In this document: in pieces, positions 43,341 through 59,754 of the stretch
How positions within the stretch are numbered: position 1 is the first letter of the stretch
How the letters are laid out: every line of letters starts with the position of its first letter
Assembly: GCA_003669055.1 (NCBI GenBank)
Contig: RAYB01000002.1
Coordinates: forward strand, 124,001 to 188,000
From: a bacterium 1XD21-70
GTDB taxonomy: Bacteria; Bacillota; Clostridia; Lachnospirales; Lachnospiraceae
Direction of reading: 5' to 3'
Length of the DNA stretch: 64,000 nucleotides
The notes under the pieces: model-generated
Databases searched by the model: none
What the model saw: the letters and a program-made list of their open reading frames with translations, nothing else
Told to the model about the DNA's origin: nothing
Program-made: the position numbers and the translations under genes

Positions 43341-43468
43341 AACATCCCTCCTGTTCTATACCATACACGCTCTGGTATTTCACGTACTTTCTGAAATTTT
43401 ACCACATTTTTGCCTAAAGGTCATTTATTTTTAAGTATCCACATGATTTTTGACAATATGTACAAAAA

Positions 43469-43496
43469 AGGAGAGTCCGTCAAACCGGACTCTCCT
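43469..43496 (-). terminator. Hairpin terminator after the cysteine hydrolase gene
   Basis: AGGAGAGTCCG and CGGACTCTCCT form an 11-bp perfect stem; on the minus strand a run of T residues follows. It ends the TRAP-hydrolase operon. Confidence 0.9.
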
Positions 43497-43506
43497 GCCC
43501 TCCTTT

Positions 43507-44157
43507 TCAATTTAACGCATCCAAAAACTCCTGATAAGTCATTACCTTCCCAATCTTCGGGAAAATCCATTTCTCACAGAAATCCTGCTCCTCCTGGGTA
43601 TCTGTGGCCGTGCAGTCACTGATCACAATCACCCGGTACCCTTTGTCGTAGGCAGATCTGGCAGACGATTCCACGCACCAGTCTGTGTGAAAGCCGGTAA
43701 ATGCCACATACTCGATCTCATTGGCCCTTAAGTAATAATCCAGCCCTGTGGAATGAAAAGCATCCAAGGTTTTCTTTCCCTCCACTACCACATCTCCTGG
43801 CTGAGGGGTAAGTTCTTTAATGATCTCCGGCCCTGGTGTCCCCCGAAGCCAGGCCCCGGTTCCCCAGTCTGCTTCCATATCCATCTCAATTCCCCGCAGG
43901 CCCTCACAGGCCGGCCCGCCCTTTTTCAGTTCCGGAAATCCTGGATCAAAAGGATGGAAGGGACAGTAAAAAATCTTAGCTACCTTTCCCCGCGCCTGAT
44001 CAAGAAGATTCTGCAGATTGGCAATCACATGACGCTCTGCTAACTGTTCTTTGATGTGGGCATACATCGTACCTCCCTCCGACAAAAAATCATTTTGCGG
44101 TTCAATCAAGACGATTGCAACCTTGTCCCTGGGAATCTTAACATTTGCCATTTTCAT
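43507..44157 (-). CDS. Isochorismatase-like cysteine hydrolase
   Basis: A 216-residue cysteine hydrolase of the isochorismatase superfamily. The catalytic triad is visible: Asp in IEPQNDFLSEGG, Lys in VEGKKTLDAFHST and Cys in AFTGFHTDWCVESSA. Members hydrolyse amides, ureido acids, or enol ethers. It follows the TRAP large permease gene by about 143 bases on the same strand and is followed by a strong terminator, so it may act on the transported compound. AAAGGGG precedes the ATG. Confidence 0.88.
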   Translation of the reverse strand: MKMANVKIPRDKVAIVLIEPQNDFLSEGGTMYAHIKEQLAERHVIANLQNLLDQARGKVAKIFYCPFHPFDPGFPELKKGGPACEGLRGIEMDMEADWGTGAWLRGTPGPEIIKELTPQPGDVVVEGKKTLDAFHSTGLDYYLRANEIEYVAFTGFHTDWCVESSARSAYDKGYRVIVISDCTATDTQEEQDFCEKWIFPKIGKVMTYQEFLDALN

Positions 44158-44300
44158 AACCCCTTTCTTTTTTATAAACCGGTGTTGGAATCCCGGCTAT
44201 TTTCGTTTTTCATTGCCAACACATTTTCGCAGAATTTTGTTATAATTTCACAAACATGGCCGCTGCTTTTTCTTCGTCCTCCATTTCTTTCAAGCACACG

Positions 44301-45629: not shown

Positions 45630-46162
45630 GATCTGCTCCCTCCTTCCCCGGCAAAGCTTTTCCCGGTCATCAGTTCATAGCCATATTTTATAATCTGGTT
45701 GATAAATTCCAGTATCATCAGCCCGGAGCCAAAGATGATGGAAAACCGCCCCGGAATCGTTGTGATACGGACGGATCCGGCAATCTCAGCCTCACCGATC
45801 TGGATGGCATTCAATAAATTAGCCCAGCTGGCCCGGATGATAAACCCATACACCAAAATGCCCAGCCCGGCAGCCGCTATATCAATGATCAGGCGCCCTT
45901 TTCTTCCCGCCTTGTCATAGAGCATGGTAGTCCTCACATGGGCCCCCTTCACTGCCACATAGGGAATCTCCCAGAAGCATACCACAATGATGATGCTGCT
46001 GACGATCTCCGCTGTGCCGGCAAACGGCTTGTTAAACAGAAACCGGCTCATCACATCCGCTGTGATCAAAAGCATAATAGCAAATACTGAAATAGCGGCT
46101 ATTCCATTGACAATCCCTAAAAATCGTTCCAGAAGCTTATCCCATTTCCGCAAAACGGACAT
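45626..46162 (-). CDS. TRAP transporter small permease (DctQ type), second system
   Basis: A 178-residue four-segment membrane protein. FNKPFAGTAEIVSSIIIVVCFWEIPY is the DctQ core in which the glutamate is conserved. The ATG at 46162 has GGGAGAG 5 bases upstream; the ATG at 46174 sits too close to its ribosome site. Overlaps the large permease start by 4 bases. Confidence 0.88.
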   Translation of the reverse strand: MSVLRKWDKLLERFLGIVNGIAAISVFAIMLLITADVMSRFLFNKPFAGTAEIVSSIIIVVCFWEIPYVAVKGAHVRTTMLYDKAGRKGRLIIDIAAAGLGILVYGFIIRASWANLLNAIQIGEAEIAGSVRITTIPGRFSIIFGSGLMILEFINQIIKYGYELMTGKSFAGEGGSRS

Positions 46163-46202
46163 ATTCTCTCCCATCTCCTCTCTTTTATCGATCTCTCAGA
46201 CA

Positions 46203-46250
46203 GGCCGCCTGCTGCCTTCCTAAGTAACCTTATCCGGCAGGCAGGCTGTC
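46203..46250 (-). promoter_or_regulatory. Mid-operon hairpin between DctP and DctQ genes
   Basis: GCCGCCTGCTGCC near 46204 pairs with GGCAGGCAGGC near 46236. Hairpins here usually protect or attenuate so that binding protein exceeds permease; that role is inferred. Confidence 0.5.
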
Positions 46251-46271
46251 TTATTTTCCCAGTACAGTCTG

Positions 46272-47435
46272 TCATCCTCCGATGTTCCAGTCCCTCACTC
46301 TCTCTACCCCGTGAGATTCCAGAATCTCGTAATACCGGGACACAATCTCTGCCCCCTTATAGCCGGCATCATCCAGATTCTTCACCAGCCCGTTTACAAT
46401 GTCCGGCAGACTTGCAGCCCACTTTTCCTGCTCCTCTCTGCTCAGGCTGATAATCGTACAGCCTTGCTCCTCAAGGGTTTTCAAATCCTGCTCATGGATT
46501 TCATTAATGTAGTTTGCCTCATAATCCAGATATCCCTCTCCCACCTCGGTAAGGATCGTCTGTACCTCCGGGGGAAGATCCTTCCAGGTGTCAAGATTTA
46601 CGGTGATGGAGTTAAATGGCACTACATTAAAATTGGCATCCAGGTAATAAGGAGCCACCTCATACACTTTCAGGTTCACACAGGAGCGGGTGGGCTGGAT
46701 GGTTGCCTGGCACACATTTGTCTGGAGATTCTGATACGTATCATTCAAAGAAGTCTGAACCCCCACTGCCCCTGAGCCTTCGATCCAGGAAAGATTGATG
46801 CCGGCCGCGCCGATCTTCATTCCATTTACATCTGCCAGAGATTTCACTTCCTTTGTGCTGTAGAATCCGTAAGGATCGGACACACCAATGCCAATGAATT
46901 TTTGATTATAATCCTTTTCATAGGTCTCGGTAAATTCCGGGTATTCCGAATAAATCTGTTTGATCGTGTCTGCCACAATCAGGGGATCCGAGCAGGAGAA
47001 AGGCATACTGTACACCATATCCTGCAAAGGAAGCCGGGAAGCCTCAAACACCAGAATCGTACAGCCGATATCCACCAGCCCGTCCTGGACTCCCTGCAAT
47101 TCATTTCCCAGTGAAATGACCGCACCGCCATAAGACTTTACCCAATTGATCTCATAACCGGTCTCCGCGCTGACGCGCTCCGACACGTTCTTTACAAAAT
47201 AATCTTCCAATGCCGTGATCCATGGATTCGACTCGGAATGTCCGGAACCGATCCGCAATGTGATCGTTTCCTTATTCCCGGAAGATGCCGCCTGGCTCTC
47301 TTTAGCAGCCGGTGCGGCCGCCGCCCCTGTTGTCTTTTGTGATCCGGTATCCTTATTCCCGCTTCCACATCCAGCCATAAGTGAAATCGCCAAACCGGCT
47401 GCCATTCCCCATGCCAAAAATCTTCTCTTTTTCAT
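46272..47435 (-). CDS. TRAP transporter substrate-binding lipoprotein (DctP type), second system
   Basis: A 387-residue lipoprotein. The signal peptide ends with the lipobox ISLMAGCGSG (cysteine near residue 22), then an Ala/Ser/Lys linker to about residue 55. The DctP fold follows (RIGSGHSESNPWITALEDYF, ADVNGMKIGAAGINLSW). The usual arginine clamp position in the KIR motif reads KIGAAG, so the ligand may not be a simple carboxylate; that point is tentative. The ATG at 47435, with AAAGGA 8 bases before, is preferred over the long frame from 47627. Promoter and two operator-like repeats lie upstream. Confidence 0.9.
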   Translation of the reverse strand: MKKRRFLAWGMAAGLAISLMAGCGSGNKDTGSQKTTGAAAAPAAKESQAASSGNKETITLRIGSGHSESNPWITALEDYFVKNVSERVSAETGYEINWVKSYGGAVISLGNELQGVQDGLVDIGCTILVFEASRLPLQDMVYSMPFSCSDPLIVADTIKQIYSEYPEFTETYEKDYNQKFIGIGVSDPYGFYSTKEVKSLADVNGMKIGAAGINLSWIEGSGAVGVQTSLNDTYQNLQTNVCQATIQPTRSCVNLKVYEVAPYYLDANFNVVPFNSITVNLDTWKDLPPEVQTILTEVGEGYLDYEANYINEIHEQDLKTLEEQGCTIISLSREEQEKWAASLPDIVNGLVKNLDDAGYKGAEIVSRYYEILESHGVERVRDWNIGG

Positions 47436-47553
47436 TTTCTCCATCCTTTCTTGCCAGGCAACAGTCTCCCTGCAAATTCTTCTGCCCACAGGCTTTGTAG
47501 TGTTAGTTTGCTTATGTTTTTGATTCTCATACCTAATACCTCTGTTTTGGACA

Positions 47554-47569
47554 CCGGATATTGGATACA
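47554..47569 (+). repeat. Operator-like repeat, copy 1 (CCGGATATTGGATACA)
   Basis: This 16-mer occurs identically at 47662-47677. Copy 1 lies just downstream of the -10 box of the TRAP promoter, where a bound GntR repressor would block transcription. Confidence 0.75.
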
Positions 47570-47582
47570 ACTTTATGTTAGT

Positions 47583-47611
47583 ATCATACACTTTATTGTG
47601 TAATTTGTCAA
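47583..47611 (-). promoter_or_regulatory. Promoter of the second TRAP operon
   Basis: On the minus strand TTGACA (47606-47611), 17 bases, TATGAT (47583-47588). Divergent to the gntR promoter and followed by operator copy 1. Confidence 0.7.
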
Positions 47612-47661
47612 TAATTATACTTATCATATTTGTTTTATATTTTTATTGCACAATATTTTAC

Positions 47662-47677
47662 CCGGATATTGGATACA
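47662..47677 (+). repeat. Operator-like repeat, copy 2 (CCGGATATTGGATACA)
   Basis: Identical to copy 1, 108 bases away. It lies directly upstream of the gntR -35 box and behind the TRAP promoter, so one regulator could act on both or loop the DNA between the copies. Confidence 0.75.
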
Positions 47678-47689
47678 TAATCCAATTCA

Positions 47690-47718
47690 TTGACTTTTCT
47701 CAGTTTTTACGGTATAGT
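47690..47718 (+). promoter_or_regulatory. Promoter of the gntR gene
   Basis: TTGACT (47690-47695), 17 bases, TATAGT (47713-47718), about 43 bases before the ATG. Confidence 0.75.
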
Positions 47719-47761
47719 TATAGGACAGAAAACATTCAAAATATAAATAAGGAGCCGCCCT

Positions 47762-48421
47762 ATGGAAAACAATCAGCCGCTTATCCAATATACAACTGTT
47801 TCCGATTCTGTCTATCTTTGGATTAAAAATGCGATTATTCAGGGAGATTTTAAACCCGGAGAACATATTGCCCAGGAAAGCCTGACCAAGAAATTAGGCG
47901 TCAGCCGTACTCCGATCCGGGATGCCATTAAGCGTTTAGAGGCTGAAGGACTTCTCATCACCCGTCCCCATTGCGGAGCCGTGGTATTTCAGTTGGACAA
48001 AAATTGCCTCCACGAAATCTATGATATCCGGATTTTGATTGAGCAGTACTGTGCTGCCAGAACTTGTATGAAAGCGTCTGAGGAACAGATTGAACAGATT
48101 GAAGCCATCAATTTGCGCATGTTAAATTATTCTAACAATTCAAAAGAATTCATGCAGCTGGATCGGCAGTTCCACGGACTTTTGTGTACCCTTTCCGGCT
48201 GCACCAACACCATAGAGATCCTGGAAGGTTTGTGGAACAAGTGCGATTCTTTTAAGTCTATCTATTACTCCTTAGAAGGGCGGAGCAATGACACCTTAGC
48301 TGAACATACCCGTATCATTCAATGTCTGAAAAACCGTGATGTGGCCGGAACCAAGCAGGCGATCTTTGACCATCTAAACGATGTTGTTGACAGTGTAAGC
48401 GCTCAGGTAAATTTTTCCTGA
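47762..48421 (+). CDS. GntR-family regulator, FadR/FCD subgroup
   Basis: A 219-residue regulator. Residues 10-80 form the winged helix (SVYLWIKNAIIQGDFKPGEH, KLGVSRTPIRDAIKRLEAEG) and the helical FCD effector domain (about 90-215) has the metal-binding His/Asp pattern (LDRQFHGLLCTLSG, EHTRIIQCLKNRD). FCD regulators sense small organic acids. It is divergent from the TRAP operon, and a TGGATACA-type site also occurs before the class II aldolase operon, so it may control both. AAGGAG precedes the ATG. Confidence 0.92.
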   Translation: MENNQPLIQYTTVSDSVYLWIKNAIIQGDFKPGEHIAQESLTKKLGVSRTPIRDAIKRLEAEGLLITRPHCGAVVFQLDKNCLHEIYDIRILIEQYCAARTCMKASEEQIEQIEAINLRMLNYSNNSKEFMQLDRQFHGLLCTLSGCTNTIEILEGLWNKCDSFKSIYYSLEGRSNDTLAEHTRIIQCLKNRDVAGTKQAIFDHLNDVVDSVSAQVNFS

Positions 48422-48449
48422 ACCATATCCCCCATTACCTGTCAAAAAA

Positions 48450-48490
48450 GGCTGTATCCTCCCGGATCTTCCATCCTGGATGATACAGCC
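48450..48490. terminator. Bidirectional hairpin between gntR and the aldolase gene
   Basis: GGCTGTATC (48450-48458) pairs with GATACAGCC (48482-48490), between convergent genes; an A run before and a T-rich stretch after. Confidence 0.8.
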
Positions 48491-48530
48491 CCAGCTTTTA
48501 TGCCAGATGCTCTTCTGCTTAAGCAGTCTT

Positions 48531-49121
48531 TTAAATATTTCCTGATAAAATGGAAATCTGAGCCGTCTCCTCCACAAGTTCCGCCAAATAGGCTGCCTCC
48601 CTCATGTCCCTTCCCATTGTCACCTGTCCATGCGCCCGCAAAAGAAATCCGAAAGCCCCCGGATGCCCGGCCAGATTTTCAAGAATATGGGGAAAATACT
48701 CTTTCGGCACAGCATAGGAATGGGTGTCAAACACTGGCACATAACCACCAAGTTTCATCCGCGAATGATGTGTGGCAAAATCCAGTTCCTCGTGGGCTGC
48801 CGCCCACGCTGTTGCATAAGGAGAATGGCAGTGCATAACCGCGCCGATCTGAGGAAATGCCCGGTACAAGGCGCCGTGAAGCAGCGCCTCCTTGGAGGGC
48901 TTTCTGTCCCCTGCTATCACATTCCCGTCAAAATCCGTAATCACCACCGTGTCTCTTCCCACCTCATGAAAGGCAACATCGGTTGCCTTGACCATCATCT
49001 GTTCCTTTCCGGCAATCCGGATACTCAGATTTCCTCCATTGCTCATCTGATACCGCAAAAGATAAAAGCGCTTTGCCACCTGCCTCAGTTCTTTTGCCTG
49101 CTCTCTGTATTCAAAATCCAT
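48531..49121 (-). CDS. Class II aldolase/adducin family protein
   Basis: A 196-residue zinc-dependent aldolase-like enzyme (fuculose-phosphate or ribulose-phosphate aldolase fold). Zinc-binding histidines are in GAVMHCHSPYATAWAA and LRAHGQVTMG; the acid Glu is in KPSKEALLHGALYRA. The ATG at 49121 with AGGAGGG 6 bases upstream is preferred over a GTG at 49139. It is the last gene of an operon with a Tm-1-like protein and a metallo-hydrolase. Such a set may break down a sugar acid brought in by the TRAP system. Confidence 0.88.
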   Translation of the reverse strand: MDFEYREQAKELRQVAKRFYLLRYQMSNGGNLSIRIAGKEQMMVKATDVAFHEVGRDTVVITDFDGNVIAGDRKPSKEALLHGALYRAFPQIGAVMHCHSPYATAWAAAHEELDFATHHSRMKLGGYVPVFDTHSYAVPKEYFPHILENLAGHPGAFGFLLRAHGQVTMGRDMREAAYLAELVEETAQISILSGNI

Positions 49122-49135
49122 AGCCATCCCTCCTG

Positions 49136-50362
49136 TCACATTCCCTCAGCCTTTAAAAGTCCCGCCATTTCCTCTGCACAGATGTGGGCAAACTCCGGAT
49201 CACAGAAATTCAGATCATATGCCTTAAAAATAATCTCCGGTTTTAATTCCTCTTCAAAAATTCGCCTCATCTTCCGGATGGTGTCCGGCTTGTGGAAGAT
49301 TTCTCCAGGCCTGCTTAAAGTCCGAAGTCCTCCTAAAGGTAAAATGACCTCTGTTTTTCCTTTGGACTGATTCAGACGGCTTACAATCGTTTTTGTAATC
49401 TCCAAAATCTCATGTTCATAAAGCCTTGTATGGGTCAGATTTTTATTGTGCCACACATATCCGCGCTCCTTGGTATCCTCAAACAATTCATCCGGACGCA
49501 GGCAGGCAAAATCAATCCCTCCCGGACAGATCAATGCAGGAATACCCATCTGCGCAGCCGCACAGAGACGATGATCCGCCCCCTTGCTGTAGCCATAGCC
49601 TCCAAAGTATTCTGCCGTCATCTCATGCAGGGACAGATCCATAACCGCTCCAATGACTCCCTGCCGGATCAGATCTTCCATCACTCTTCCTCCAATGCCG
49701 GTGGAATGAAAGCTGATCGTCCTCCTCCCCTTCTCTGTCAGCTCATTGGCTGCCTGCATCACCGTATCATTGGTAATCCCCATCAGTGTGGCGGCTATGT
49801 AGCACTCCCCTCTGGTATCAATCAAAGCCCCTCCGCAAGAAACCATTCCAATCATGGCTCCCACTGCATTCCCAAGTACCGCCTCGCTAATCGGATTCAT
49901 GCCTGCAAAATCCACAATGGAAGGAAGCACCACAATATCCTTATCTCCCACCACTGTATCAAAATACCGGAATCCGCTGGCTATCGTGGAACAGATAAGC
50001 TTGGGAAAACCAATGGGAAGCAGGCGAAGAGCGGCTGAACAGACCACTGTATTCTGAAGCCCGCCCATGCCGATTACCCCATCAATCTCCTTTTTCTCAT
50101 AAAGATGAAAGATCATCCGGCAGATACTGTCTGTCATTGCAGAGATTGCTCCGCTTTTGTCCATTGCGCAAACCTGCTCCCAGGTATAGCCACCCATGGT
50201 CAGCACCTGCTCCCGGGAAATATCCGCCCGGATCGGAACCTCTGGCCCTGTACTAATGTCCAGAATCAACGGCTGCATCCCTGCCGCCTGGATTTTCTCC
50301 TTTACAAACAGAATCTCATGGTATTTTGTATCACAACATGCAATCACTGCAATTACTGCCAT
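49136..50362 (-). CDS. Tm-1-like ATP-binding domain protein (UPF0261)
   Basis: A 408-residue protein of the Tm-1-like family, with VIAVIACCDTKYHEILFVKEKI at the start and IDGVIGMGGLQNTVVCSAAL and AGMNPISEAVLGNAVGAMIG in the core. The C-terminal domain has GYGYSKGADHRLCAAAQMGI. The family occurs next to class II aldolases, kinases and isomerases in sugar acid pathways; some relatives are metal-dependent hydrolases or isomerases, but the reaction is not established. The aldolase gene follows after about 14 bases. Confidence 0.85.
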   Translation of the reverse strand: MAVIAVIACCDTKYHEILFVKEKIQAAGMQPLILDISTGPEVPIRADISREQVLTMGGYTWEQVCAMDKSGAISAMTDSICRMIFHLYEKKEIDGVIGMGGLQNTVVCSAALRLLPIGFPKLICSTIASGFRYFDTVVGDKDIVVLPSIVDFAGMNPISEAVLGNAVGAMIGMVSCGGALIDTRGECYIAATLMGITNDTVMQAANELTEKGRRTISFHSTGIGGRVMEDLIRQGVIGAVMDLSLHEMTAEYFGGYGYSKGADHRLCAAAQMGIPALICPGGIDFACLRPDELFEDTKERGYVWHNKNLTHTRLYEHEILEITKTIVSRLNQSKGKTEVILPLGGLRTLSRPGEIFHKPDTIRKMRRIFEEELKPEIIFKAYDLNFCDPEFAHICAEEMAGLLKAEGM

Positions 50363-50391
50363 TATTCTCGAAGTTTTCCAAACTTCTTATC

Positions 50392-51210
50392 TCACCTGCC
50401 TTCCGCTGTCAGGCCAAGAACCGGCGTTTTTTCAATCCGCTCCATCATCTCCCTGTCATGACAGGTCAGAATATGCTCCAGGCTCTGGGCACGCTCCTTA
50501 ATCAGGCGAATACTTTTCCAAACAGCTACAATGTCGGAAAAACGGTTGGGAGGCGTAATATCATAGTGCAGCTTTTCAATCGGTTTTGTATTGTCCATAA
50601 TAAATATGGCGTCACCGCAGCAGATGTAGCTTCCTAAAGCCGTATCAATCTCCACCGACTGATGCCCCACCGAATGTCCCGGCGTCTCAAACACCCGGAC
50701 GCCTGGCATAATCTCTGTCTCCCCCTCCACCAGATTCATGGAAATCCCCTCAAAAGGCCGGATAAGCCCCAGCTGAGGCGCCTCGTAGGATTTGTAATAC
50801 AAGGGGATCGGATCCATGGCAAACTCGTACTCCTTACGATTCACATAAAACTGCGCATTGGTGAATCTCTCCATATAAAAGCAGTGATCCCAATGAAGAT
50901 GGGTAAACACCACGATCTCAATATCCTCTGGCTGATATCCCAGCTTTGCCAGCTGCTCTGTGATCGCCATCCCTTCTGGCTGAAAGGATCCGTGGTGGTG
51001 ATAGCGGTCTGCCCTTTGGGTGTAAGCCATACCCGTGTCCACCAGCAAAAGCTTGTCTCCTCCCTCCACCAGATAAGTAAAAACCGGATATTCCTCTTCC
51101 TGGTCGGAAGCCTCCGGATAAAAAGCAGTCGTGGAATGATGATACAGATATTGTCTGGGAATCATTGTCACAAATCCGGTGTTAATAGGTCTTATTGTCA
51201 ATTTACTCAT
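50392..51210 (-). CDS. Metallo-beta-lactamase-fold hydrolase (AHL-lactonase-like)
   Basis: A 272-residue metallo-hydrolase. The zinc motif HxHxDH appears in FTHLHWDHCFYME; a further His in ETPGHSVGHQS and an Asp in CCGDAIF complete the site. It is closest in layout to N-acyl-homoserine lactonases, but here it is the first gene of a sugar-acid-like operon and may open a lactone ring there (inference). AGGAGG lies 8 bases before the ATG. A TGGATACA-type repeat precedes it. Confidence 0.87.
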   Translation of the reverse strand: MSKLTIRPINTGFVTMIPRQYLYHHSTTAFYPEASDQEEEYPVFTYLVEGGDKLLLVDTGMAYTQRADRYHHHGSFQPEGMAITEQLAKLGYQPEDIEIVVFTHLHWDHCFYMERFTNAQFYVNRKEYEFAMDPIPLYYKSYEAPQLGLIRPFEGISMNLVEGETEIMPGVRVFETPGHSVGHQSVEIDTALGSYICCGDAIFIMDNTKPIEKLHYDITPPNRFSDIVAVWKSIRLIKERAQSLEHILTCHDREMMERIEKTPVLGLTAEGR

Positions 51211-51381: not shown

Positions 51382-52395
51382 TTAATCCAGCTTTTTCACT
51401 GTAAGTGTGGCATTGACACCGCTGCCAAGGGTCACTCCCACCGCCAGCACTGCCGACAAAGCCAAATCCACAACACTTGTTGCTGTCAAAGTTACAATGG
51501 TGCTTCCGCTGAACAGCGAACTGGTACCAACTGCAAGAAGCCTGGAAATGGTTGCACTGGGAACATTGGTTCCATTGACTCTTACAGCAAATGTAATGGT
51601 CGTTGCCACTGCTGCCGTCAAAGTGGTGGAGTAATTGATTTCATAAGTGCCTGCTTCTGCAACCACAATGCTGTTTGCCGGTACATAGGTTGCATTTTTT
51701 ACGGGTCCGGCTGTGGCAAGAGGAATCTGCGTTGTCCCTCCCACGGTCAGATTCAAAGTCTGCGGTGCCGTGCTGTACAAAGCTCCATAAGCATTCAGAC
51801 CATTTGCCGGGCCAGTGGGACCGGTAGCCCCTGTGAGGCCTGCCGCTCCGGTCGGGCCGGTCGCTCCCACCGCGCCTGCTGCCCCGGCTGGGCCTTCTGG
51901 GCCGGTCGGGCCGGTTGGGCCGGTCGGGCCGGTTGGGCCTGCTGCTCCCGTTGGACCTGCTGGGCCGGTTGGACCGGTCGCTCCCGCCGCTCCTGCCGGA
52001 CCCTCTGCTCCGGTCGGACCTGCTGGGCCGGTTGGACCTGTCGCTCCCGCCGCTCCTGCCGCTCCCGCTGCTCCCGTTGGACCTTCTGGGCCGGTCGGAC
52101 CGGTCGCTCCCGCTGGACCTGCCGCACCGGTCGGACCTGTCGCTCCCGCCGCTCCTGCCGGACCCTCTGCTCCGGTTGGACCTGCTGGGCCTGTTGGACC
52201 TGTCGCTCCCGCCGCTCCCGTGGCTCCTGCTGCTCCGGTCGGACCTGCTGAGCCAGTGGGACCCGTTGCTCCCGCCGCTCCTGCCGGACCTGCTGCTCCC
52301 GTTGGGCCTGCTGGGCCTGTTGGGCCTGTTGCTCCCGCCACACCTGCTGGACCGGTCGCTCCCGTAGGACCCGCCGCTCCCGTGGCTCCACCCAT
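51382..52395 (-). CDS. Collagen-like protein, C-terminal half (severed by the serine recombinase element)
   Basis: 337 residues: about 200 of unbroken Gly-X-Y triplets (mostly [12 protein letters not shown]), then a 135-residue globular domain beginning [19 protein letters not shown], resembling the trimeric C-terminal domain of BclA-type exosporium proteins. There is no N-terminal region, no ribosome site before the ATG at 52395, and an in-frame TAA directly upstream. It therefore looks like the rear half of a larger gene. The front half is at 57852-58592; both contain GGAGCCACGG at the break in the same codon phase. Separate expression is doubtful. Confidence 0.8.
52380..52389 (+). repeat. 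Left junction core (CCGTGGCTCC)
   Basis: The direct repeat at the left end of the element; host collagen DNA lies to the left, element DNA (ACCCATTTATAC) to the right. The 10-mer also occurs at 52218-52227 and 58163-58172 inside the Gly-X-Y region. Confidence 0.65.
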
Positions 52396-52434
52396 TTATA
52401 CAAAACTTAAAGCTGAAATTTAATAGGAAACCTG

Positions 52435-54135
52435 CTATGCCGTTTTCCCATTCTTTTTTCCAACGATTGTTCGTTCATTTTGATTATTTTCCATCCACTC
52501 TATAATCCGGTGATGTTGGTCTGCAAAGTTAAACTCAATGCTGATTTCACCGCCCTGGTGAATATAAATATTTTTTACCAAATCAACCAAGATTCCTCTG
52601 TTCAGTTCTTTTATATTTTTATATTTCAGAAAATAGGCCAAATAAGGGTCATTCTTTGAAACTCCTTTTGCCATTACCTGACACTCTGACTGAATGTTTT
52701 GTATCGTCACTTTCAGCTGTTCCGCTTGGGAAGAATACTTCTGTTTTAAACGAGTATATTCGTCTTTGGAGATATCTCCGCTTTTCCAATCACCATAAAG
52801 CCCATCTGCAATGCCAATCACTTTATCCAACTCCTTTTGGCGAAGGTGGAGCATAGCTGCCAAACGGGTTGATTCATTTTTGGCAACGGGGGACTTATTG
52901 ATTTCCTCCACCACATCAGTTAAAGAATCAACCAGAGAAATCTGTGCCTGGATTGCTGCTAAAACAGCTTTCATCACCACTTCTTCCTTGATGGTATGTT
53001 TCGTGCAGGCATTTTTTGATTTTTCCCGGAAGGTACGACAGTAATAATAAACAATATTTTTTGTTTTCTGTCTTGTCATCGCCTTTTTGCAATCCGCACA
53101 GCGGATAAATCCAGATAATAAATGCAGCTTTCTCCCTGACGGCGCTGTCCGGGTATCTCTTGTCTGAAGGTCAGACGCTTTTTGGAAAAGTTCAGCTTCA
53201 ATAATCGGCTCATGGGTATCAGGAACCATATACCAGTCTTCCTCTGGAACAGCAACTTTATCATGTACTTTATAGCTGATTACTGTCTGCTTGCCTTGCA
53301 CCATAATTCCTAAGTACATTTTATTTTTCAAAACCGTAGTAACTGAACTAGGCGACCAAAGTCCGTCATTTTTCCCTCCCTGGGGACAGCAAAAATTCAG
53401 TCCTTTGCTTTTCTTATAAGCGGCCGGGCCCGCTATCCCTAAGTCATTGAGCCGATGTGCGATTCCATTTTTACTCATACCCTCATAAACAAACCATTGG
53501 TAAATATTTCGCACTACTTCTGCGGCCTCTTCATCAATGATTAAAGCATTTTTATTTTCCGGGGCTTTCTTATAGCCATATGGAGCAAATGCTCCAATAA
53601 ATTCACCCTTTCGGCGTTTTGTTGCAAAGGTATCGCGGACGTCTGATGAAGTTTTCGCCGCAAAACGGTCATTCATCAAGCCATTAATCGGGACTTCTAA
53701 GCCCTGAAGGGTTTCCGGGTGAAGAAAAGAATCAACTCTTGGGGCACTAACCGTAATGAACCTGGTTTTATTCATGGGAAAGATTTTTTCCAAAAAATAT
53801 CCCTGATCCGAATAATTCCGAAACATGCGGGAAAGGTTTTTGCAGATAATACAGTTAATCTTTCCGGCCTCCATATCATGGAGCATTCGTTGAAAATCCG
53901 GGCGGTCATAATCGGTTCCCGTCAGGCCGTCATCAATATAGTAATCAACAAGTGCAAACTCTCCCTCAAAAAAGGTTTCCAAATACTCCCCAATGATTTT
54001 TTTCTGATTAGTAACGCTTAAACTCTCATCGTTTCCATCTTCCCGTGAAAGACGAATATAGGCAGCAATGAGCCAAATTGTTTTGTGAGAAGCTGAATGA
54101 ACACCACTACTCACAGCTTTTCTGATTCTAGCCAT
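52435..54135 (-). CDS. Large serine recombinase
   Basis: A 566-residue site-specific recombinase of the TndX/TnpX-like clostridial type. The catalytic domain (residues about 20-170) has the serine at 30 in AYIRLSREDG and the Arg-rich block KNLSRMFRNYSDQGYFLE. The recombinase domain follows (APYGYKKAPENK), then a zinc ribbon (FIRCADCKKAMTRQ...YYYCRTF, with a later Cys in KNACTKH) and a C-terminal coiled coil (about 430-490). It can insert and excise DNA at att sites. Its stop is 46 bases from the left junction, the usual position beside an att site. GGGAGG precedes the ATG. Confidence 0.93.
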   Translation of the reverse strand: MARIRKAVSSGVHSASHKTIWLIAAYIRLSREDGNDESLSVTNQKKIIGEYLETFFEGEFALVDYYIDDGLTGTDYDRPDFQRMLHDMEAGKINCIICKNLSRMFRNYSDQGYFLEKIFPMNKTRFITVSAPRVDSFLHPETLQGLEVPINGLMNDRFAAKTSSDVRDTFATKRRKGEFIGAFAPYGYKKAPENKNALIIDEEAAEVVRNIYQWFVYEGMSKNGIAHRLNDLGIAGPAAYKKSKGLNFCCPQGGKNDGLWSPSSVTTVLKNKMYLGIMVQGKQTVISYKVHDKVAVPEEDWYMVPDTHEPIIEAELFQKASDLQTRDTRTAPSGRKLHLLSGFIRCADCKKAMTRQKTKNIVYYYCRTFREKSKNACTKHTIKEEVVMKAVLAAIQAQISLVDSLTDVVEEINKSPVAKNESTRLAAMLHLRQKELDKVIGIADGLYGDWKSGDISKDEYTRLKQKYSSQAEQLKVTIQNIQSECQVMAKGVSKNDPYLAYFLKYKNIKELNRGILVDLVKNIYIHQGGEISIEFNFADQHHRIIEWMENNQNERTIVGKKNGKTA

Positions 54136-54196
54136 TTAACCTCCCATCTCTCTATCATCACACAAGAGAATCACAACATATCTCGCCCTAAAGTCC

Positions 54197-54514
54197 TCAC
54201 TTTAAAGCGCAAAAATATCCAGTGAGTACCTTAGAAAGTTCCTTCTCCTCATCCACAAAGGAAATATGTACAGGTGTCCCATCACAGAGAAAGTTATATG
54301 GGTTTTGAATCTGCTCAATATATTGGAGCATACGCAAAGTACCGGGCAAACTAGAATCAATCTTTACGCCACGAATGTCTACCAGATTATCTCTAGGTAT
54401 GTCCTCAATGGAATCTTGGCACATACGCTCAAGCCGTTCTGCTGACAATATTTTTCGGCCTCCTTTAAGTTGTCGAGTAGTAAAGTCTATGATTACCCGT
54501 TTGTCCAATATCAT
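54197..54514 (-). CDS. DUF6870-type small protein
   Basis: A 105-residue protein with AERLERMCQDSIEDIPRDNL, VDIRGVKIDSSLP and YIEQIQNPYNFLCDG, a pattern I associate with DUF6870 proteins of mobile elements in Lachnospiraceae. GGAGG lies about 5 bases before the ATG at 54514. It is upstream of the recombinase on the same strand and may be co-transcribed. Function unknown. Confidence 0.75.
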   Translation of the reverse strand: MILDKRVIIDFTTRQLKGGRKILSAERLERMCQDSIEDIPRDNLVDIRGVKIDSSLPGTLRMLQYIEQIQNPYNFLCDGTPVHISFVDEEKELSKVLTGYFCALK

Positions 54515-54771
54515 CTCACCTCCCACAAATCTGTATCAAAATCATATCAACACAAAATTAGTATGATAAATGATCCAGCCAAACATACTGATAACATGTT
54601 CTATAGGACTTTTTGTATCGTATGATCTAAAACAGCAGGACTGTCCACCGGCTGCCCGTTATTTGTCAAAGTACAGAATTGAAAAGAGAGTTTTCCTTTC
54701 ACTGCCAAGGGCAGAAACCGGGTAAAAGTTGATAAAAAGTTTGGATTAAATCAACTTTTTTAAAACAAAAA

Positions 54772-54807
54772 GAATCGGTCAGACAAAAAAGCCATGTCGC
54801 CCGATTC
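54772..54807. terminator. Terminator-like hairpin in the element
   Basis: GAATCGG (54772-54778) pairs with CCGATTC (54801-54807), flanked by A and T runs. It lies in the 54515-54996 gap, where no gene is seen. Confidence 0.5.
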
Positions 54808-54922
54808 CTTTTTCAAGTTAGGTTAATATGTATTTTAATCTCTCAGGTTCGGATTCTTTAAAGTTAATATAATATAAATTGATAGAACCAATTCAATCTT
54901 ATGTTTCTTAAATAAATAAAGA

Positions 54923-54953
54923 AACTGCCGCATGTTTTTGTCAGGCGGCAGTT
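54923..54953 (-). terminator. Hairpin terminator after the 326-residue element protein
   Basis: AACTGCCGC (54923-54931) pairs with GCGGCAGTT (54945-54953); T-rich sequence follows on both strands. Confidence 0.8.
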
Positions 54954-54996
54954 CTTTTTCCTTATGGAATAAATTTAACTACTTTCTGCATATAGC

Positions 54997-55977
54997 TTAA
55001 TTATTTTCCGTTCTCTTTACCATTTCTTCCATAATCGAGGTGATTTTTTTATATAAATCTACTTCTCGTTTTGTTTCTGTCGTTTTGTGATCATAGATAA
55101 GTGAACTCTGATAGCGCACAAACGCTAATATATTTCCGTCAGCATAATCATGAACCGGCTCTAATGGCGAGTACCATGTTTCTGGTTCACTTCTGTTAAG
55201 CCTCTCTCCTCCATAACAGACATATTTTTTATCTTCCTCAGATATGACTCCTTTACTTTGAAGAAAATCTAAAAATTCGTCATATTCTTTCTGGGTCATA
55301 TTTTGGGGATTCCAGTTGGAGGAAAGGTACTCATAGTCTTTGTCCTCCAACTTTCCGTTCGGTTCCATTGCTGTAGACGAAATACCGCTTGTATCTGAAA
55401 ATGTTGCTCCCTTCGTGCGGTGACAGAAAAGGTAGCGCTCCAATTCACTCATGTAAATTCCGGCATTTTGTTTCAATCCCGCATTTTCCAGATTAGAAGC
55501 CCAGTTTTCATAATACTGTTTAAAATCCATGGCTGTGTTTACATCCTGGTGACTGCCAAGTGCCATAAGCGGTATCCCGCTGCTTGCCTTTACACTTTTG
55601 TCCCCCTGCTGTGCCAGGTGGACGCGTAACGCAGTCATTTCCGCAGGCGTGGCATTTTCTGCGTTCACATCATTTAAATGGATTTTCCGGGTAAAACTTT
55701 TTCCATGGATATCTTTTCCCTCGACATACATCACCGGGTCGTCATCTGTGGAACTTTCGTCATACTTCATGTGAAGTTCCTGCCCTGAAACGGGACTGAA
55801 CTCACTATGTAAATAGCCCATTTTTAACGTGCCATGATAATTGCTGCCAGGAGCAGATGATGACCGTCCACTTATCTGACTTTGACCAAAAACATTTCTT
55901 ATATTATTTCTGGACGTAGTTCCAGCCGGATATCTTGCCGTGGGAAATCCTGCGCCTTGTAAACCTAATACACTCAT
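54997..55977 (-). CDS. Element-borne protein of unknown family (326 residues)
   Basis: A 326-residue protein starting MSVLGLQGAGFPTARYPAGT, with no signal peptide or membrane segment and no domain I recognise. Its C-terminus (DGNILAFVRYQSSLI...DLYKKITSIMEEM) recurs in a broken copy at 56624-56766, showing a family that has duplicated in this element. GAGGAG precedes the ATG. It follows the 174-residue gene by 27 bases on the same strand; the two are probably one functional unit. Confidence 0.8.
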   Translation of the reverse strand: MSVLGLQGAGFPTARYPAGTTSRNNIRNVFGQSQISGRSSSAPGSNYHGTLKMGYLHSEFSPVSGQELHMKYDESSTDDDPVMYVEGKDIHGKSFTRKIHLNDVNAENATPAEMTALRVHLAQQGDKSVKASSGIPLMALGSHQDVNTAMDFKQYYENWASNLENAGLKQNAGIYMSELERYLFCHRTKGATFSDTSGISSTAMEPNGKLEDKDYEYLSSNWNPQNMTQKEYDEFLDFLQSKGVISEEDKKYVCYGGERLNRSEPETWYSPLEPVHDYADGNILAFVRYQSSLIYDHKTTETKREVDLYKKITSIMEEMVKRTENN

Positions 55978-56004
55978 TTTTTCTCCTCAATCTGTCTTTT
56001 TCAT

Positions 56005-56529
56005 TTATGCCTTTAATTGTTCCAATATCTCTAAAAATTTTCTGTAATCCTGAAAATGCTGGGATTTATTTACATCAACATCGGTAGCCGCTTTTGAATA
56101 TTCATATAAATTTTTATAGGAATCCAGCCCTCCGACTTCCAACATCGTTCCCAGTCCTCCCAAACTTCCAAAAGAATTGTTTTTTCGGTCGGAAACATCA
56201 TCACATTTTGTTAAAACGCCTTCTGGTTTGGTGGGATTGATCTTGCTTTCATCTAACGGCGTAATGCCTAAATAGATAGCAGTAGCCCTTCCTTTGGAAA
56301 TGATACCGGCTTCCACCAGTTCGCCCATCAGCGCAATCGAATCTTTTTTTGACATATTTGAGGAATTATATTTCTGTTTCAGATTTTCTAATTCTTCATC
56401 GGTCAGTTTATCTTTTTTTGCACCTTCTACCCATTTTTCTGCCTGCTGCTGGAAGTAAGAAGGGTGGTATGCTACTTCTTTTTTTGTAACGGCATATACA
56501 GGAAATCCATTTACCATCTGAATTGTCAT
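56005..56529 (-). CDS. Element-borne protein of unknown family (174 residues)
   Basis: A 174-residue, charged, mostly helical protein (MTIQMVNGFPVYAVTKKEVAYHPS at the start; LTDEELENLKQKYNSSNMSKKDSIALMGELVEAGIISKG in the middle, which resembles an EF-hand-like or small helical motif only in general form). No membrane segment. AAGGGG lies about 10 bases upstream. First gene of the pair with the 326-residue protein. Function unknown. Confidence 0.75.
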   Translation of the reverse strand: MTIQMVNGFPVYAVTKKEVAYHPSYFQQQAEKWVEGAKKDKLTDEELENLKQKYNSSNMSKKDSIALMGELVEAGIISKGRATAIYLGITPLDESKINPTKPEGVLTKCDDVSDRKNNSFGSLGGLGTMLEVGGLDSYKNLYEYSKAATDVDVNKSQHFQDYRKFLEILEQLKA

Positions 56530-56623
56530 AATCGTGTTACCCCTTACGTTTTAATCTATGGTTCCTCTATCGGTCAGAACCATTTATGCTCCCTTACATA
56601 TAAGTCCAAGCATATACTGTTGT

Positions 56624-56766
56624 TTAACTATTTTCTTGTAACCCGCATTCAAATATAGCCGCAATCTTACGGTACAGCCCTTTCGTTTCTTCATTAAACG
56701 CTAATGAGCCAGAATCTACCAAAGATCTTTGGCTGCGTGTAAAAGCCAGCACATTCCCATCAATTG
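56624..56766 (-). pseudogene. C-terminal fragment of a paralogue of the 326-residue protein
   Basis: The minus strand encodes IDGNVLAFTRSQRSLVDSG and on to GLYRKIAAIFECGLQENS then a stop, matching the C-terminus of the intact protein at 54997-55977. There is no N-terminal part. This accounts for part of the 56530-56882 gap, where nothing else is seen. Confidence 0.75.
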
Positions 56767-56882
56767 CTCACCTCCCTAATCTTTCTTAATTTTATATTTT
56801 TAAGAAATAATCAGAAACTGGAGAGAATTATTATTTCACCTCCTTTAAATTCTATCTCTACAGTCTGTTCATTTCGTAAAAA

Positions 56883-57429
56883 TCAAGTTTGTATGATGGT
56901 CTCTTCTATCTCTTTTATATCACTTTCAATCAATTCCGGAAAATATTTACGGATTTCGTCTGCTATAATTTTTCCTTTTTGCAACATAAAGACAGCCTTT
57001 TCTCTTGCCAAATCATACTTTTCCCTGCTTTCCAGACAGTCTTTCAATACATTTCTATCTTTACAGATATTATAGCCAGATGGTTTGACCAGCTTACTTC
57101 TATCAGCTTTCAGTTGTTTGACTTCTTCAAGAGAAAGCCCAGAAATATTAACAATTTCCTCTAAAGCATATTTGCCAGCCGCCAACATACGGAGCGCAAC
57201 CTCTTTCATTCCTTCTTTCAATGTCTGATTCCTCATATCTTCCATAGCCCGGCACATAATTTCGATCCCCTCCTTGCTTTCCTTGAAAAAATCTCACCCT
57301 GTCTGCCAGTATCCCATAGTATATATCCGCTGCGTCTGTGCAGGAGAAATCATGCATTAACTTCCCGATTGGCGTTCCGCCACTGTCAATCTTCCCACCT
57401 GCTTTCTCTTCCGTTTTCGTATCTCCATC
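56883..57429 (-). pseudogene. PD-(D/E)XK nuclease / Rpn-family protein, truncated and frameshifted
   Basis: The C-terminal part (MCRAMEDMRNQTLKEGMKEV ... KYFPELIESDIKEIEETI) is open from 57257 to 56883, and the piece just upstream (GGTPIGKLMHDFSCTDAADIYYGILADRVRFF) lies in another frame. The frames meet at a run of six T residues (minus strand; 57286-57291), which fits a one-base insertion. The N-terminal catalytic domain is missing, with a stop before 57429. Such proteins are common in Lachnospiraceae mobile DNA. Confidence 0.75.
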
Positions 57430-57453
57430 CTACCATAAACCTCCTGATTTTAC

Positions 57454-57488
57454 AAGCCGGGAGCCAGCGTATTTCTGAATCCCGGCTT
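57454..57488. terminator. Hairpin between two element pseudogenes
   Basis: AAGCCGGGA (57454-57462) pairs exactly with TCCCGGCTT (57480-57488). Confidence 0.6.
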
Positions 57489-57506
57489 CTTGCCGTTATC
57501 GTTTTT

Positions 57507-57688
57507 TCACATCTGCTGTATCTCATTTTTCAGAATACGCTTGATTTTGTCGCTCATGGTTTCCTTGCTGGTCTTACTGAAATGAATCCGCACAATGTAG
57601 GTAGTCCGGCCAATCTTCTTCACCAGTGCGAAAGCCTCTTAGCCGGTGCTGTGGTGGTAGTGTCCTCTGTGATTTTCTCGCTGCTCAT
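57507..57688 (-). pseudogene. TnpW-like transposon protein, frameshifted
   Basis: The ATG at 57688 starts MSSEKITEDTTTTAPA and soon meets a stop, while the next frame reads EEAFALVKKIGRTTYIVRIHFSKTSKETMSDKIKRILKNE to TGA at 57507. Together they match the small TnpW proteins of clostridial transposons; one base appears to be missing near 57640. Confidence 0.7.
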
Positions 57689-57714
57689 AATTTCTCCTTT
57701 TCATAAAATCAAAC

Positions 57715-57855
57715 ATCACTTTTGAAATCAGCTATGCGCAAGGCGTACTGCCGGAAGTATTCTCGGAGCCGAAGGCGAAAATGACACGGGCCGAGAAGGC
57801 CGCAGCAGAGCCGGAAGCAAAACCAGAGGCTGAGAAAATCACCGAAAGTGCCTAA
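57715..57855 (+). pseudogene. Plus-strand C-terminal remnant, unknown family
   Basis: An open stretch without a start reads ITFEISYAQGVLPEVFSEPK and ends in an Ala/Glu/Lys/Pro-rich tail before TAA. Probably the end of a lost mobile-element gene near the right boundary. Confidence 0.35.
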
Positions 57856-58592
57856 ATGCGGGTTTGCAGCACTTTTATATAAATATATGGCTCCGTGGCT
57901 CCTGCCGGGCCTGCTGCCCCCGTCGGACCGGTTGGCCCTGCCGGGCCGGTGGCTCCTGCTGCTCCTGCTGAACCGGTTGCTCCGGTTGCCCCTGCCGGGC
58001 CGGTCGCTCCCTGGATTCCCTGCGGCCCAACCGGCCCCTGGACTCCATCCTGACCCTGCGCCCCGGTCACTCCCTGAATTCCCTGCGGCCCTTGAGGCCC
58101 TTGTGGGCCTACCGCCCCTGCGGCTCCCATCGGTCCTTGCGGCCCTTGTGGCCCAGTCGCCCCCGTGGCTCCGGCAGGACCGGTTGCTCCAGTCGGGCCG
58201 GTTGCCCCATAAGGCTGTACTGCTGTCACCAGGTCATAATCCGGTGAAATCCCCGGCAGCCCTACCGGGTAATTCCTGTTTACACGGTAAAGGTAGCCAT
58301 CGTAATACACTAAGTCTCCTTCCAGATATTGTCTTGTCGGGTCAAAGGGCTCTGCCGTGGTAAGCCCTGGCCCCATAGCCCCGGTCGGTCCGGCCGGCCC
58401 CTGTGGCCCCATCGGGCCTGTAGGCCCCATCGGGCCTCTGCAGCAGCAGGATGCCCCGGGAGGATAGGGGGGTACGGGCGGATAGGGCGGAACCGGCGGG
58501 CAAGGGGGCATCGGTGGGTTTGGCTGGCAGCAGCGCCTCGATGCACATCCCTGGTTTCTCCCATTGCCGGAATCGGTCGAATTGCAATACAT
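57852..58592 (-). CDS. Collagen-like protein, N-terminal half (severed by the serine recombinase element)
   Basis: 246 residues: a Cys-rich start ([22 protein letters not shown]), a Pro-rich repeat ([12 protein letters not shown]), a short Gly-X-Y block, an insert with [20 protein letters not shown] that resembles a carbohydrate-binding-like module, then about 90 residues of Gly-X-Y to GAT at residue 233. The last 13 residues ([13 protein letters not shown]) are encoded by the element and break the repeat. AAAGGAG precedes the ATG. The frame would continue directly into 51382-52395 if the element were removed. Follows a glycosyltransferase gene on the same strand. Confidence 0.85.
57893..57902 (+). 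repeat. Right junction core (CCGTGGCTCC)
   Basis: The second copy of the 10-mer; element DNA (TATAAATATATGGCT) lies to the left, host collagen DNA (TGCCGGGCC) to the right. Confidence 0.65.
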
Positions 58593-58656
58593 AGAATCAC
58601 TCCTTTTTCATTATCCCCGCCGTCAGCCTTGAAAAGCTTTCCGTCGGTTTACTCTA

Positions 58657-59754
58657 TTATATGTCCATCTGCAATTTTGGTTCGTCCATTCCCATATCAT
58701 GAAAATATTTCTCATTCCACAGAACCGCTTCTGCATCCGGCTTGCGCTTTTTGCTGCGCCGGTGGTAGGAATACGCCTTCTGCCGGTCGCCTAGGCGGTC
58801 ATAGCACACACATAAATTAATCTCCGGCAGGTATCCGTAATAATCCCACCGGACAAACCCCCCGTTCTCCTCCTCCGGATTTAGGCGAAGTGCTGTCTCA
58901 TACCAAAATACTGCCTGCCTCCACTGTTTATGGGACTGGAAATGCTGCCCCAGTTCAAAACAGGCCTCCCCTCTGGGGCTGCCATACAGAAAACTCCCCA
59001 GCAATGCCCTGGCGGCTTCTTCTGCCTGTCCCAAGGCCCGGAAACATTCTGCCAGGTTTAAGCAGGCCTCAATCTTGTTCTCCACCCATCCGTCCCCCCC
59101 AAGGAAAGACTCAAACACCTTTATAGCATCCCCATATCGCTTATGCGCCAGCAGTTCCCTCCCATAATAAAACAAGCTTCTTCCCGACAGTACCTCCCCT
59201 TCTTGTATCATCCTCTCATAGATCCTTAAATTCCTGTCTCCGTCTCCCGGCCCCATCTTGCAATGGGTAACGGCAATGTCAGAGTGCACGATTTTCCCGG
59301 ACGGCACAATTGCCTCGTGGACACGCCCCTCCCACCGGAACCCCTTGCCATTCCGGATCAGCCGTTCCCGTTCATAGGAAAACAAAGGGTTCCCTTCGCC
59401 ATCTCTTGCCGTCTCATATTTCATCATCACCACATCGGTATCCTTGTCCAGATACCCCTTTAATTCTGACAGCTTTTTCTGGTTTTCCTCTGTCAGCACA
59501 TCATCTGCATCCAGCCACATGCAGTAATCCATGGATGCTTTTGAGAAAGCTTCGTTTCTGGCAGCCGCGAAGTCGTCCTTCCAGGCAAATTCATACACCT
59601 TTGCCCCGTATTCCCCGGCAATCTCCCGGGTTTTGTCCTCTGACCCTGTATCCACTATAATAATTTCATCAACCAGCCTGCCAACCGTCTCCAAGCAGCG
59701 TGCCAGCACCGGCTCCTCATTTTTCACAATCATACACAAACTAACCGTAATCAA
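58657..59754 (-). CDS. Family 2 glycosyltransferase with TPR-like C-terminus
   Basis: A 365-residue cytoplasmic glycosyltransferase. The GT-A domain starts ITVSLCMIVKNEEPVLARCL, with IIIVDTGSEDKTREIA and the metal-binding DxD-like MWLDADDVL. Residues about 200-330 form TPR-like helical repeats (FYYGRELLAHKRYGDAIKVF, ACFELGQHFQSHKQWRQAVF). Translation seems to begin at TTG (59754), since no in-frame ATG precedes the family start and GGGGCGG is just upstream. It lies 64 bases before the collagen-like gene and may glycosylate it, as happens for BclA in Bacillus (inference). Confidence 0.85.
   Translation of the reverse strand: MITVSLCMIVKNEEPVLARCLETVGRLVDEIIIVDTGSEDKTREIAGEYGAKVYEFAWKDDFAAARNEAFSKASMDYCMWLDADDVLTEENQKKLSELKGYLDKDTDVVMMKYETARDGEGNPLFSYERERLIRNGKGFRWEGRVHEAIVPSGKIVHSDIAVTHCKMGPGDGDRNLRIYERMIQEGEVLSGRSLFYYGRELLAHKRYGDAIKVFESFLGGDGWVENKIEACLNLAECFRALGQAEEAARALLGSFLYGSPRGEACFELGQHFQSHKQWRQAVFWYETALRLNPEEENGGFVRWDYYGYLPEINLCVCYDRLGDRQKAYSYHRRSKKRKPDAEAVLWNEKYFHDMGMDEPKLQMDI

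What the first reader, a model, noticed from the sequence alone, without database searches (positions are those of the whole stretch)
51382..58592. A collagen-like surface gene is split in two by a recombinase element, and its halves rejoin in frame if the element is removed
The C-terminal half (51382-52395) has no ribosome site, has a TAA directly before its ATG, and starts inside Gly-X-Y repeats. The N-terminal half (57852-58592) has a good start but ends with a 13-residue non-collagen tail ([13 protein letters not shown]). At the break the two share GGAGCCACGG in the same codon phase. Deleting one copy plus the DNA between (about 5513 bp) gives one continuous Gly-X-Y frame of about 565 codons with an N-terminal Cys/Pro-rich head and a BclA-like C-terminal domain. 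A large serine recombinase gene lies beside the left junction. This matches the logic of sporulation genes repaired by site-specific excision in other Firmicutes (sigK/skin, spsM/SPbeta). The cell type or condition is not known.
Basis: partly seen in the sequence, partly recalled or inferred. Interest (0 to 1): 0.95.

Follow-up and report, generated by a model that had tools for sequence, protein, structure and literature searches.

The report
Mobile element splits spore-surface collagen gene
A collagen-like, probably spore-surface gene of a gut bacterium is cut in two by a decayed mobile element that still carries its own recombinase; a relative has the same gene uncut, so the gene probably works only after the element cuts itself out.

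Summary
Confirmed: 51382-58592 holds two halves of one collagen-like gene around a 5,513-bp element. Relative G017 has the gene uncut with matching neighbours on both sides. Five other genomes have it cut at a Gly-Ala-Thr codon beside a 77-99% identical large serine recombinase. At 13 of 13 sites where I had both ends, the rebuilt attP is an inverted repeat centred on the AC of a Thr codon and the host join is in frame. Full conjugative elements (ICEs) occupy the site in G004 and G073; the window's is an ICE remnant keeping recombinase and DUF6870. G003 and G171 have a collagen gene cut twice. A sigma-K-like promoter precedes 14 of 15 collagen genes examined, and the host's own sigK is split too. 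The promoterless C-half still evolves as coding sequence. Not shown: excision itself, or its timing in sporulation. Best reading: a skin-like spore-gene-intervening element, but ICE-derived and aimed at a repetitive surface gene; a new variant of a known kind. The shared 10-mer alone proves nothing.

The parts
57852..58592 (-). N-half of the collagen-like gene; host part 57895-58592, the last 14 codons read element DNA
51382..52395 (-). C-half: Gly-X-Y repeats plus BclA_C domain; host part 51382-52383
52384..57896 (.). intervening element, 5,513 bp (crossover inside the GT/AC at 52382-52383 and 57895-57896)
52382..52405 (-). C-side att site: AC crossover plus 22-bp element arm TTTTGTATAAATGGGTGGAGCC
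57873..57896 (-). N-side att site: AC crossover plus 22-bp element arm GGAGCCATATATTTATATAAAA
52435..54135 (-). large serine recombinase, 566 aa (Resolvase, Recombinase, Zn_ribbon_recom)
54197..54526 (-). DUF6870 protein, 109 aa, upstream of the recombinase; candidate recombination directionality factor (inference)
54997..55977 (-). 326-aa ORF of unknown function, 89% identical copy in G004's ICE
56005..56529 (-). 174-aa ORF of unknown function, 96% identical copy in G004's ICE
56883..57257 (-). 124-aa ORF, no Pfam or NCBIfam match
57480..57855 (.). broken mobile-element remnants at the N-side end (a TnpW-like stretch with stops, name recalled; and a 45-codon fragment on +)
   Evidence: sequence; name from memory
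58655..58683 (-). sigma-K-like promoter GAACC-N-GGACATATAATA; the only match of its strict pattern in the own genome
58657..59754 (-). glycosyltransferase (family 2) with TPRs, immediately upstream of the collagen gene in seven genomes

Best explanation
[quoted passage not shown] In the window's lineage the ICE has lost its transfer genes but kept the recombinase, DUF6870 and both att sites. Recombination between the two att sites would excise it and restore one 565-codon frame. Most likely this happens in the mother cell during sporulation, as with skin and SP-beta, where a sigma-K promoter then expresses the rejoined spore-surface protein. Shown by sequence: the split, the uncut relative, the att structure, the ICE ancestry, coding constraint on both recombinase and C-half. 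Inferred: that excision occurs, its cell type and timing, DUF6870 as directionality factor, exosporium location.
For: Uncut 603-codon frame in G017 with the same upstream glycosyltransferase (72%) and the same downstream 390-aa and 503-aa genes (85%, 90%). Same break in G003, G004, G021, G011 and C49_72 beside 95, 95, 93, 99 (partial) and 77% identical recombinases. attP inverted repeat with best centre at the AC in 13 of 13 (15-17 of 22 matches; next best centre 10-13), in frame 13 of 13. ICE genes in G004 and G073 elements; window ORFs 54997-55977 and 56005-56529 are 89% and 96% identical to G004 ICE ORFs. Recombinase dN/dS 0.055-0.107 over six relatives. C-half versus G011 contig C36, both cut: 6 synonymous, 0 nonsynonymous changes in 140 codons, rough neutral P 0.0004. 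Sigma-K-like site upstream in 14 of 15 genes against 1.1 expected. Own sigK split between contigs C79 and C43. C. difficile bclA1-3 are sigma-K controlled (PMC3789822, passages); skin excision there uses a constitutive recombinase plus a mother-cell factor (PMC5025042, passages).
Against: No rejoined allele or circle of this element was found: attP pattern 0 of 24 genus assemblies, C-side att pattern 0 in viral contigs. The recombinase moved between species recently (dS 0.27-0.28 against 1.5 or more for chromosomal neighbours), so the cut may be young and merely tolerated. By eye the recombinase's promoter looks sigma-A-like, and no mother-cell promoter was evident before DUF6870. A 92% identical recombinase in L062 is not beside collagen. 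The constraint test rests on one strain pair and G011's contig C36 may be misbinned.
Confidence: 0.62

Rival explanations
1. Ordinary ICE insertion: the collagen repeats are simply the integration site, the gene is knocked out in carriers, and excision is only the rare event needed for transfer.
For: Complete ICEs at the site in G004 and G073; recombinase dS far below that of neighbours, hence horizontal movement; the same recombinase superfamily uses other sites in many genomes.
Against: The window's element and the 3.8-kb second element of G171 keep recombinase and DUF6870 with no transfer gene among the ORFs examined; the cut-off C-half stays under constraint; promoter intact.
Confidence: 0.25
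2. Phase variation: stochastic excision and re-integration switches a surface protein on and off in growing cells, without link to sporulation.
For: Surface-type gene; serine recombinase with both att sites present.
Against: Sigma-K-like promoter in 14 of 15 genes; large serine recombinases need a directionality factor for excision (PMC5025042, passages); lost circles would make OFF-to-ON one-way.
Confidence: 0.1
3. Two independent collagen genes or an assembly artefact in repeats; no functional split.
For: Collagen repeats are easily misassembled and share many 10-mers; three of the 13 pairs lie on different contigs.
Against: Ten of the 13 pairs lie on single contigs, including a one-contig genome (G073) and a two-contig genome (G016); syntenic uncut gene; C-half start codon not conserved.
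Confidence: 0.03

Closest known systems
skin element in Clostridioides difficile sigK (CD1231 recombinase, CD1234 directionality factor)
   Same: Large serine recombinase, host gene split, in-frame rejoining by attL x attR; recombinase with a small partner gene in the element.
   Different: Target is a collagen-like gene, not sigK; ICE-derived; excision not demonstrated here; DUF6870 not shown to be a directionality factor. (PMC5025042, passages)
SP-beta in spsM of Bacillus subtilis (SprA/SprB)
   Same: Spore-envelope gene split by a mobile element; the window recombinase has YokA, the SP-beta recombinase, among its matches in solved structures (E 6e-18).
   Different: SP-beta is a prophage; here ICE genes and an ICE remnant. 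(PMC4191935, passages)
gin in gerE of Bacillus cereus ATCC10987
   Same: Non-phage intervening element with serine recombinases in a sporulation gene.
   Different: Other target gene; gin has three recombinases; no ICE machinery reported in the passages seen. (PMC5595907, passages)
yin in yabG of Clostridium botulinum V73
   Same: Intervening element with recombinase in a sporulation gene.
   Different: Prophage-like; yin excision was observed. (PMC10747680, passages)
BclA collagen-like exosporium glycoproteins
   Same: Gly-X-Y repeats plus BclA C-terminal domain, glycosyltransferase neighbour.
   Different: The N-terminal head has no Pfam match; spore location untested. (PMC3789822 passages; PMC7157674 search listing only)

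Membership tests
large serine recombinase integrative element | Resolvase + Recombinase + zinc ribbon domains | tested here: met
   matches to TnpX, YokA, phiC31 and TP901-1 integrases
large serine recombinase integrative element | attP made of inverted arms around a central dinucleotide shared by both ends | tested here: met
   13 of 13 reconstructed sites, centre AC; the crossover was set at AC to build attP, then all centres within 30 bp were scored
large serine recombinase integrative element | empty site in a relative | tested here: met
   G017, both flanks syntenic
sporulation-gene-intervening element (skin kind) | lies inside a gene involved in sporulation | tested here: inconclusive
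   BclA_C domain and sigma-K-like promoter; no expression data
sporulation-gene-intervening element (skin kind) | element excises as a circle and rejoins the gene | not testable with these tools
   no reads or cultures; att-pattern searches found no circle
sporulation-gene-intervening element (skin kind) | excision timed to sporulation or the mother cell | not testable with these tools
   needs culture
sporulation-gene-intervening element (skin kind) | prophage-like gene content | tested here: not met
   relatives carry ICE genes; window ORFs have no phage family in Pfam or NCBIfam; gin is a known non-phage exception
intact ICE | relaxase and conjugation genes in the element | tested here: not met
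   none among the five window ORFs scanned; met in G004 and G073
BclA-like exosporium protein | collagen repeats with BclA_C domain | tested here: met
BclA-like exosporium protein | located on the spore surface | not testable with these tools
   needs spores

The most novel reading that the evidence does not exclude
A lineage of ICE recombinases in Lachnospiraceae and beyond has specialised on spore-surface collagen genes, whose Gly-X-Thr repeats offer many in-frame landing sites. Some genes now carry two elements with different recombinases, so their protein is assembled only after two separate excisions, in hosts that may also need to rejoin a split sigK first: a layered, combinatorial DNA-rearrangement programme of spore maturation.
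Probability: 0.35. Interest if true: 0.88.

Novelty: new variant of a known kind. Interest (0 to 1): 0.78.

Why it matters
Known intervening elements sit in single conserved sporulation genes. Here the target is a repetitive, fast-evolving surface gene, the elements are ICEs or their remnants, and independent recombinase types hit the same codon motif. It suggests that conjugative elements hide in genes needed only in the doomed mother cell, and that spore-surface proteins of gut commensals are missed or miscalled as fragments in genome annotation. It makes direct tests possible in culturable mouse-gut isolates. Seven literature searches listed no report of a collagen-like gene split this way; that is not proof of absence.

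Tried and rejected
Shared 10-mer as proof: rejected, 33 distinct 10-mers are shared. C-half as its own gene: rejected, start codon not conserved. Search for the excised circle or further carriers: C-side att pattern found only in the own genome of 397 family genomes (that draw held only two genomes of the genus, so G003, G004, G011 and G021 were not in it); attP pattern 0 of 24 genus genomes; viral contigs 0 for the C-side att pattern and no relative of the recombinase. N-halves were found in 4 of 7 regions scanned for them (G073, G248, G154, G171:C5) and not in G171:C8, G366:C1 and G024:C1. Collagen-adjacent recombinase loci with only one end in hand (for example L117, L120, L122, L126, L142, L065, L115, L137) were left out of the att count. 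The tree of 48 recombinases needs 8 changes of the collagen label (shuffled mean 14.7), so collagen targeting is clustered but not one clean clade; its labels miss L115 and L137, whose short repeats I saw only afterwards. DUF6870 as a mark of collagen elements: rejected, it accompanies 34 of 40 near and 4 of 13 far recombinases. The N-domain gave no result and was redone. The sigma-A reading of the recombinase promoter is by eye only. An earlier count said that G018's uncut gene shares both flanks; only its downstream flank could be seen, because its contig starts inside the gene.
Full report
What is there. On the minus strand the order is glycosyltransferase (58657-59754), collagen N-half (57852-58592), element, collagen C-half (51382-52395). 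The C-half has Pfam Collagen and BclA_C, the N-half Pfam Collagen, and the element a 566-aa large serine recombinase, DUF6870 and three ORFs without a Pfam match. The two copies of the 10-bp word are 5,513 bp apart; the join gives 566 codons with one terminal stop. Collagen stretches share many 10-mers (33 distinct here), so that word alone is no evidence, and in-frame restoration is automatic for any insertion into a gene. The case rests on comparison.

The uncut gene. Among 24 genomes of the genus searched with the N-half, 17 had a match. G017 has an uncut 603-codon frame whose C-domain is 90% identical to the window's. Upstream lies the same glycosyltransferase (72%); downstream lie the same 390-aa and 503-aa genes (85% and 90%), which in the window follow about 8 kb further on, after a block of other genes. 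G018 has an uncut frame with the same downstream genes, but its contig starts inside the gene, so its upstream side is unseen.

The same cut elsewhere. Recombinases 95% (G003), 95% (G004), 93% (G021), 99% over residues 139-566 (G011) and 77% (C49_72, L063) identical lie beside collagen sequence. In all six genomes, the window included, the break falls on a Gly-Ala-Thr codon. N-side tails and C-side arms are alike. Both ends are on one contig in the window (5,513 bp), C49_72 (6,063), G003 (19,519) and G004 (44,283). They are on different contigs in G021 and G011; G011 is a metagenome assembly and its contig C36 may be misbinned, since its C-side is 99% and its N-side about 70% identical to the window.

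Attachment sites. I built attP from the two element ends with the crossover set at the AC of the Thr codon and scored all centres within 30 bp with 22-bp arms. In 7 of 7 sites and 6 of 6 the best centre was that AC (15-17 of 22 matches; next best 10-13), and all 13 joins were in frame. These are about six recombinase types, not 13 independent events. Besides type A (six genomes) they are a second element of G003 (its halves on two contigs), G073 and G248 (28,744 and 37,222 bp, same attP), G154 and the first G171 element (29,752 and 25,580 bp), a second G171 element (3,806 bp) and G016 (25,443 bp, recombinase at the other end and inverted). G171 has both its elements in one gene on one contig. 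G003's gene is likewise cut twice, its last piece on another contig being tied to the locus by downstream synteny. G004 shows a second att-like break 14 codons after the first at a contig end, an inference from one end.

How far the association reaches. Of 41 loci with recombinases at least 41% identical or of type A, 17 have Gly-X-Y runs at the recombinase's 3' end by script and four more by eye (L040, L121, L115 and L137). Of 13 more distant recombinases none did. The 41 are not independent. Twenty-four of 397 family genomes have such a recombinase. One case, Candidatus Stoquefichus massiliensis (L065), is labelled Erysipelotrichaceae. A 92% relative in L062 is not beside collagen, and one whole subclade uses varied other sites.

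ICE ancestry. G004's element has RepA_N/DUF6017, a coupling protein, TrbL, TraG P-loop, NlpC/P60, topoisomerase and relaxase; G073's has the same set with DUF6017 and ArdA (ten ORFs of each were scanned). In G003, seven scanned ORFs of the element include a second recombinase, a sigma-54 factor and a symporter and no conjugation family; in C49_72 two scanned ORFs have none. The window's 326-aa and 174-aa ORFs are 89% and 96% identical to G004 ICE ORFs, and its N-side end holds broken mobile-element pieces (the name TnpW is recalled). So the window element reads as an ICE remnant that kept the recombinase module.

Movement and constraint. Between window and G003 or G004 the recombinase has dS 0.27-0.28 and dN/dS 0.08-0.09, while chromosomal neighbours have dS 1.5 or more, or saturated. 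The module has therefore moved between species and is constrained. For the C-half, window and G011 contig C36, both cut, differ by 6 synonymous and 0 nonsynonymous changes in 140 codons (rough neutral P 0.0004). Against uncut G017 dN/dS is 0.105. A promoterless fragment without a conserved start should not keep this unless it is rejoined, at least in part of the population. It is one strain pair only.

Link to sporulation. AC-N15-18-CATAnnnT occurs upstream in 11 of 11 genes and 3 of 4 (missing in G154), against 1.1 expected in total. Seven of the 15 are orthologues, and four are uncut genes. A stricter form has one match in the own genome, at this gene. In 5 of 7 loci that could be read, the -10 motif lies in different frames of the overlapping glycosyltransferase (phase 0 in three, 2 in two), which speaks for a regulatory rather than coding constraint. 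C. difficile bclA1-3 are sigma-K controlled (PMC3789822, passages). The own genome's sigK is in two pieces on contigs C79 and C43. In the genus, 16 of 24 genomes have a near-full sigK match, 3 (G000, G003, G020) have both halves apart, one has a shortened match, 2 only a 5' part and 2 none. G020's sigK halves flank an element of about 3.5 kb with its own recombinase.

Mechanism. I propose attL x attR excision by the recombinase with DUF6870 as directionality factor. DUF6870 precedes 34 of 40 near recombinases (six misses) and 4 of 13 far ones, and is retained in G171's 3.8-kb element. In C. difficile skin the recombinase is constitutive and the directionality factor mother-cell-specific (PMC5025042, passages). 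Here the recombinase promoter looks sigma-A-like by eye, and no mother-cell promoter for DUF6870 was evident. Excision itself was not observed: no attP in 24 genus assemblies, no C-side att pattern in viral contigs.

Verdict. Integration by the recombinase into one gene is close to certain. Competence to excise is likely. Programmed excision in sporulation is the best reading but unproven, with ordinary ICE insertion as the main rival. Compared with skin, SP-beta, gin and yin (passages) the new features are the collagen-like target, the ICE origin, the repeat-codon landing site and the doubly cut genes.

Noticed in passing
G000:C79:3225-3509 (L112) and G000:C43:123284-123634 (L113): The window genome's sigK is itself split into two pieces on different contigs, skin-like.
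   Followed up: partly
L164:1566-5881: G020's sigK is split by an element of about 3.5 kb carrying its own serine recombinase next to the 3' half.
   Followed up: partly
L062:3762-5435: A 92% identical type-A recombinase in another metagenome assembly is not beside a collagen gene and its last residues are replaced.
   Followed up: no
window about 43300-51210: About 8 kb (metallo-beta-lactamase-fold gene and a neighbouring gene block) separates the C-half from genes that follow the collagen gene more closely in G017 and G003.
   Followed up: partly
L070 from 19065: In G004 a second att-like break follows 14 codons after the first, with a hairpin-like repeat; probably a second element in tandem.
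   Followed up: partly
L078 and L084: In G016 the recombinase sits inverted at the N-side end of its 25-kb element, unlike the others.
   Followed up: no
G000:C73:1-768 and G000:C79:18557-19222: A second collagen gene of the own genome appears cut by contig ends, probably an assembly break in repeats.
   Followed up: no
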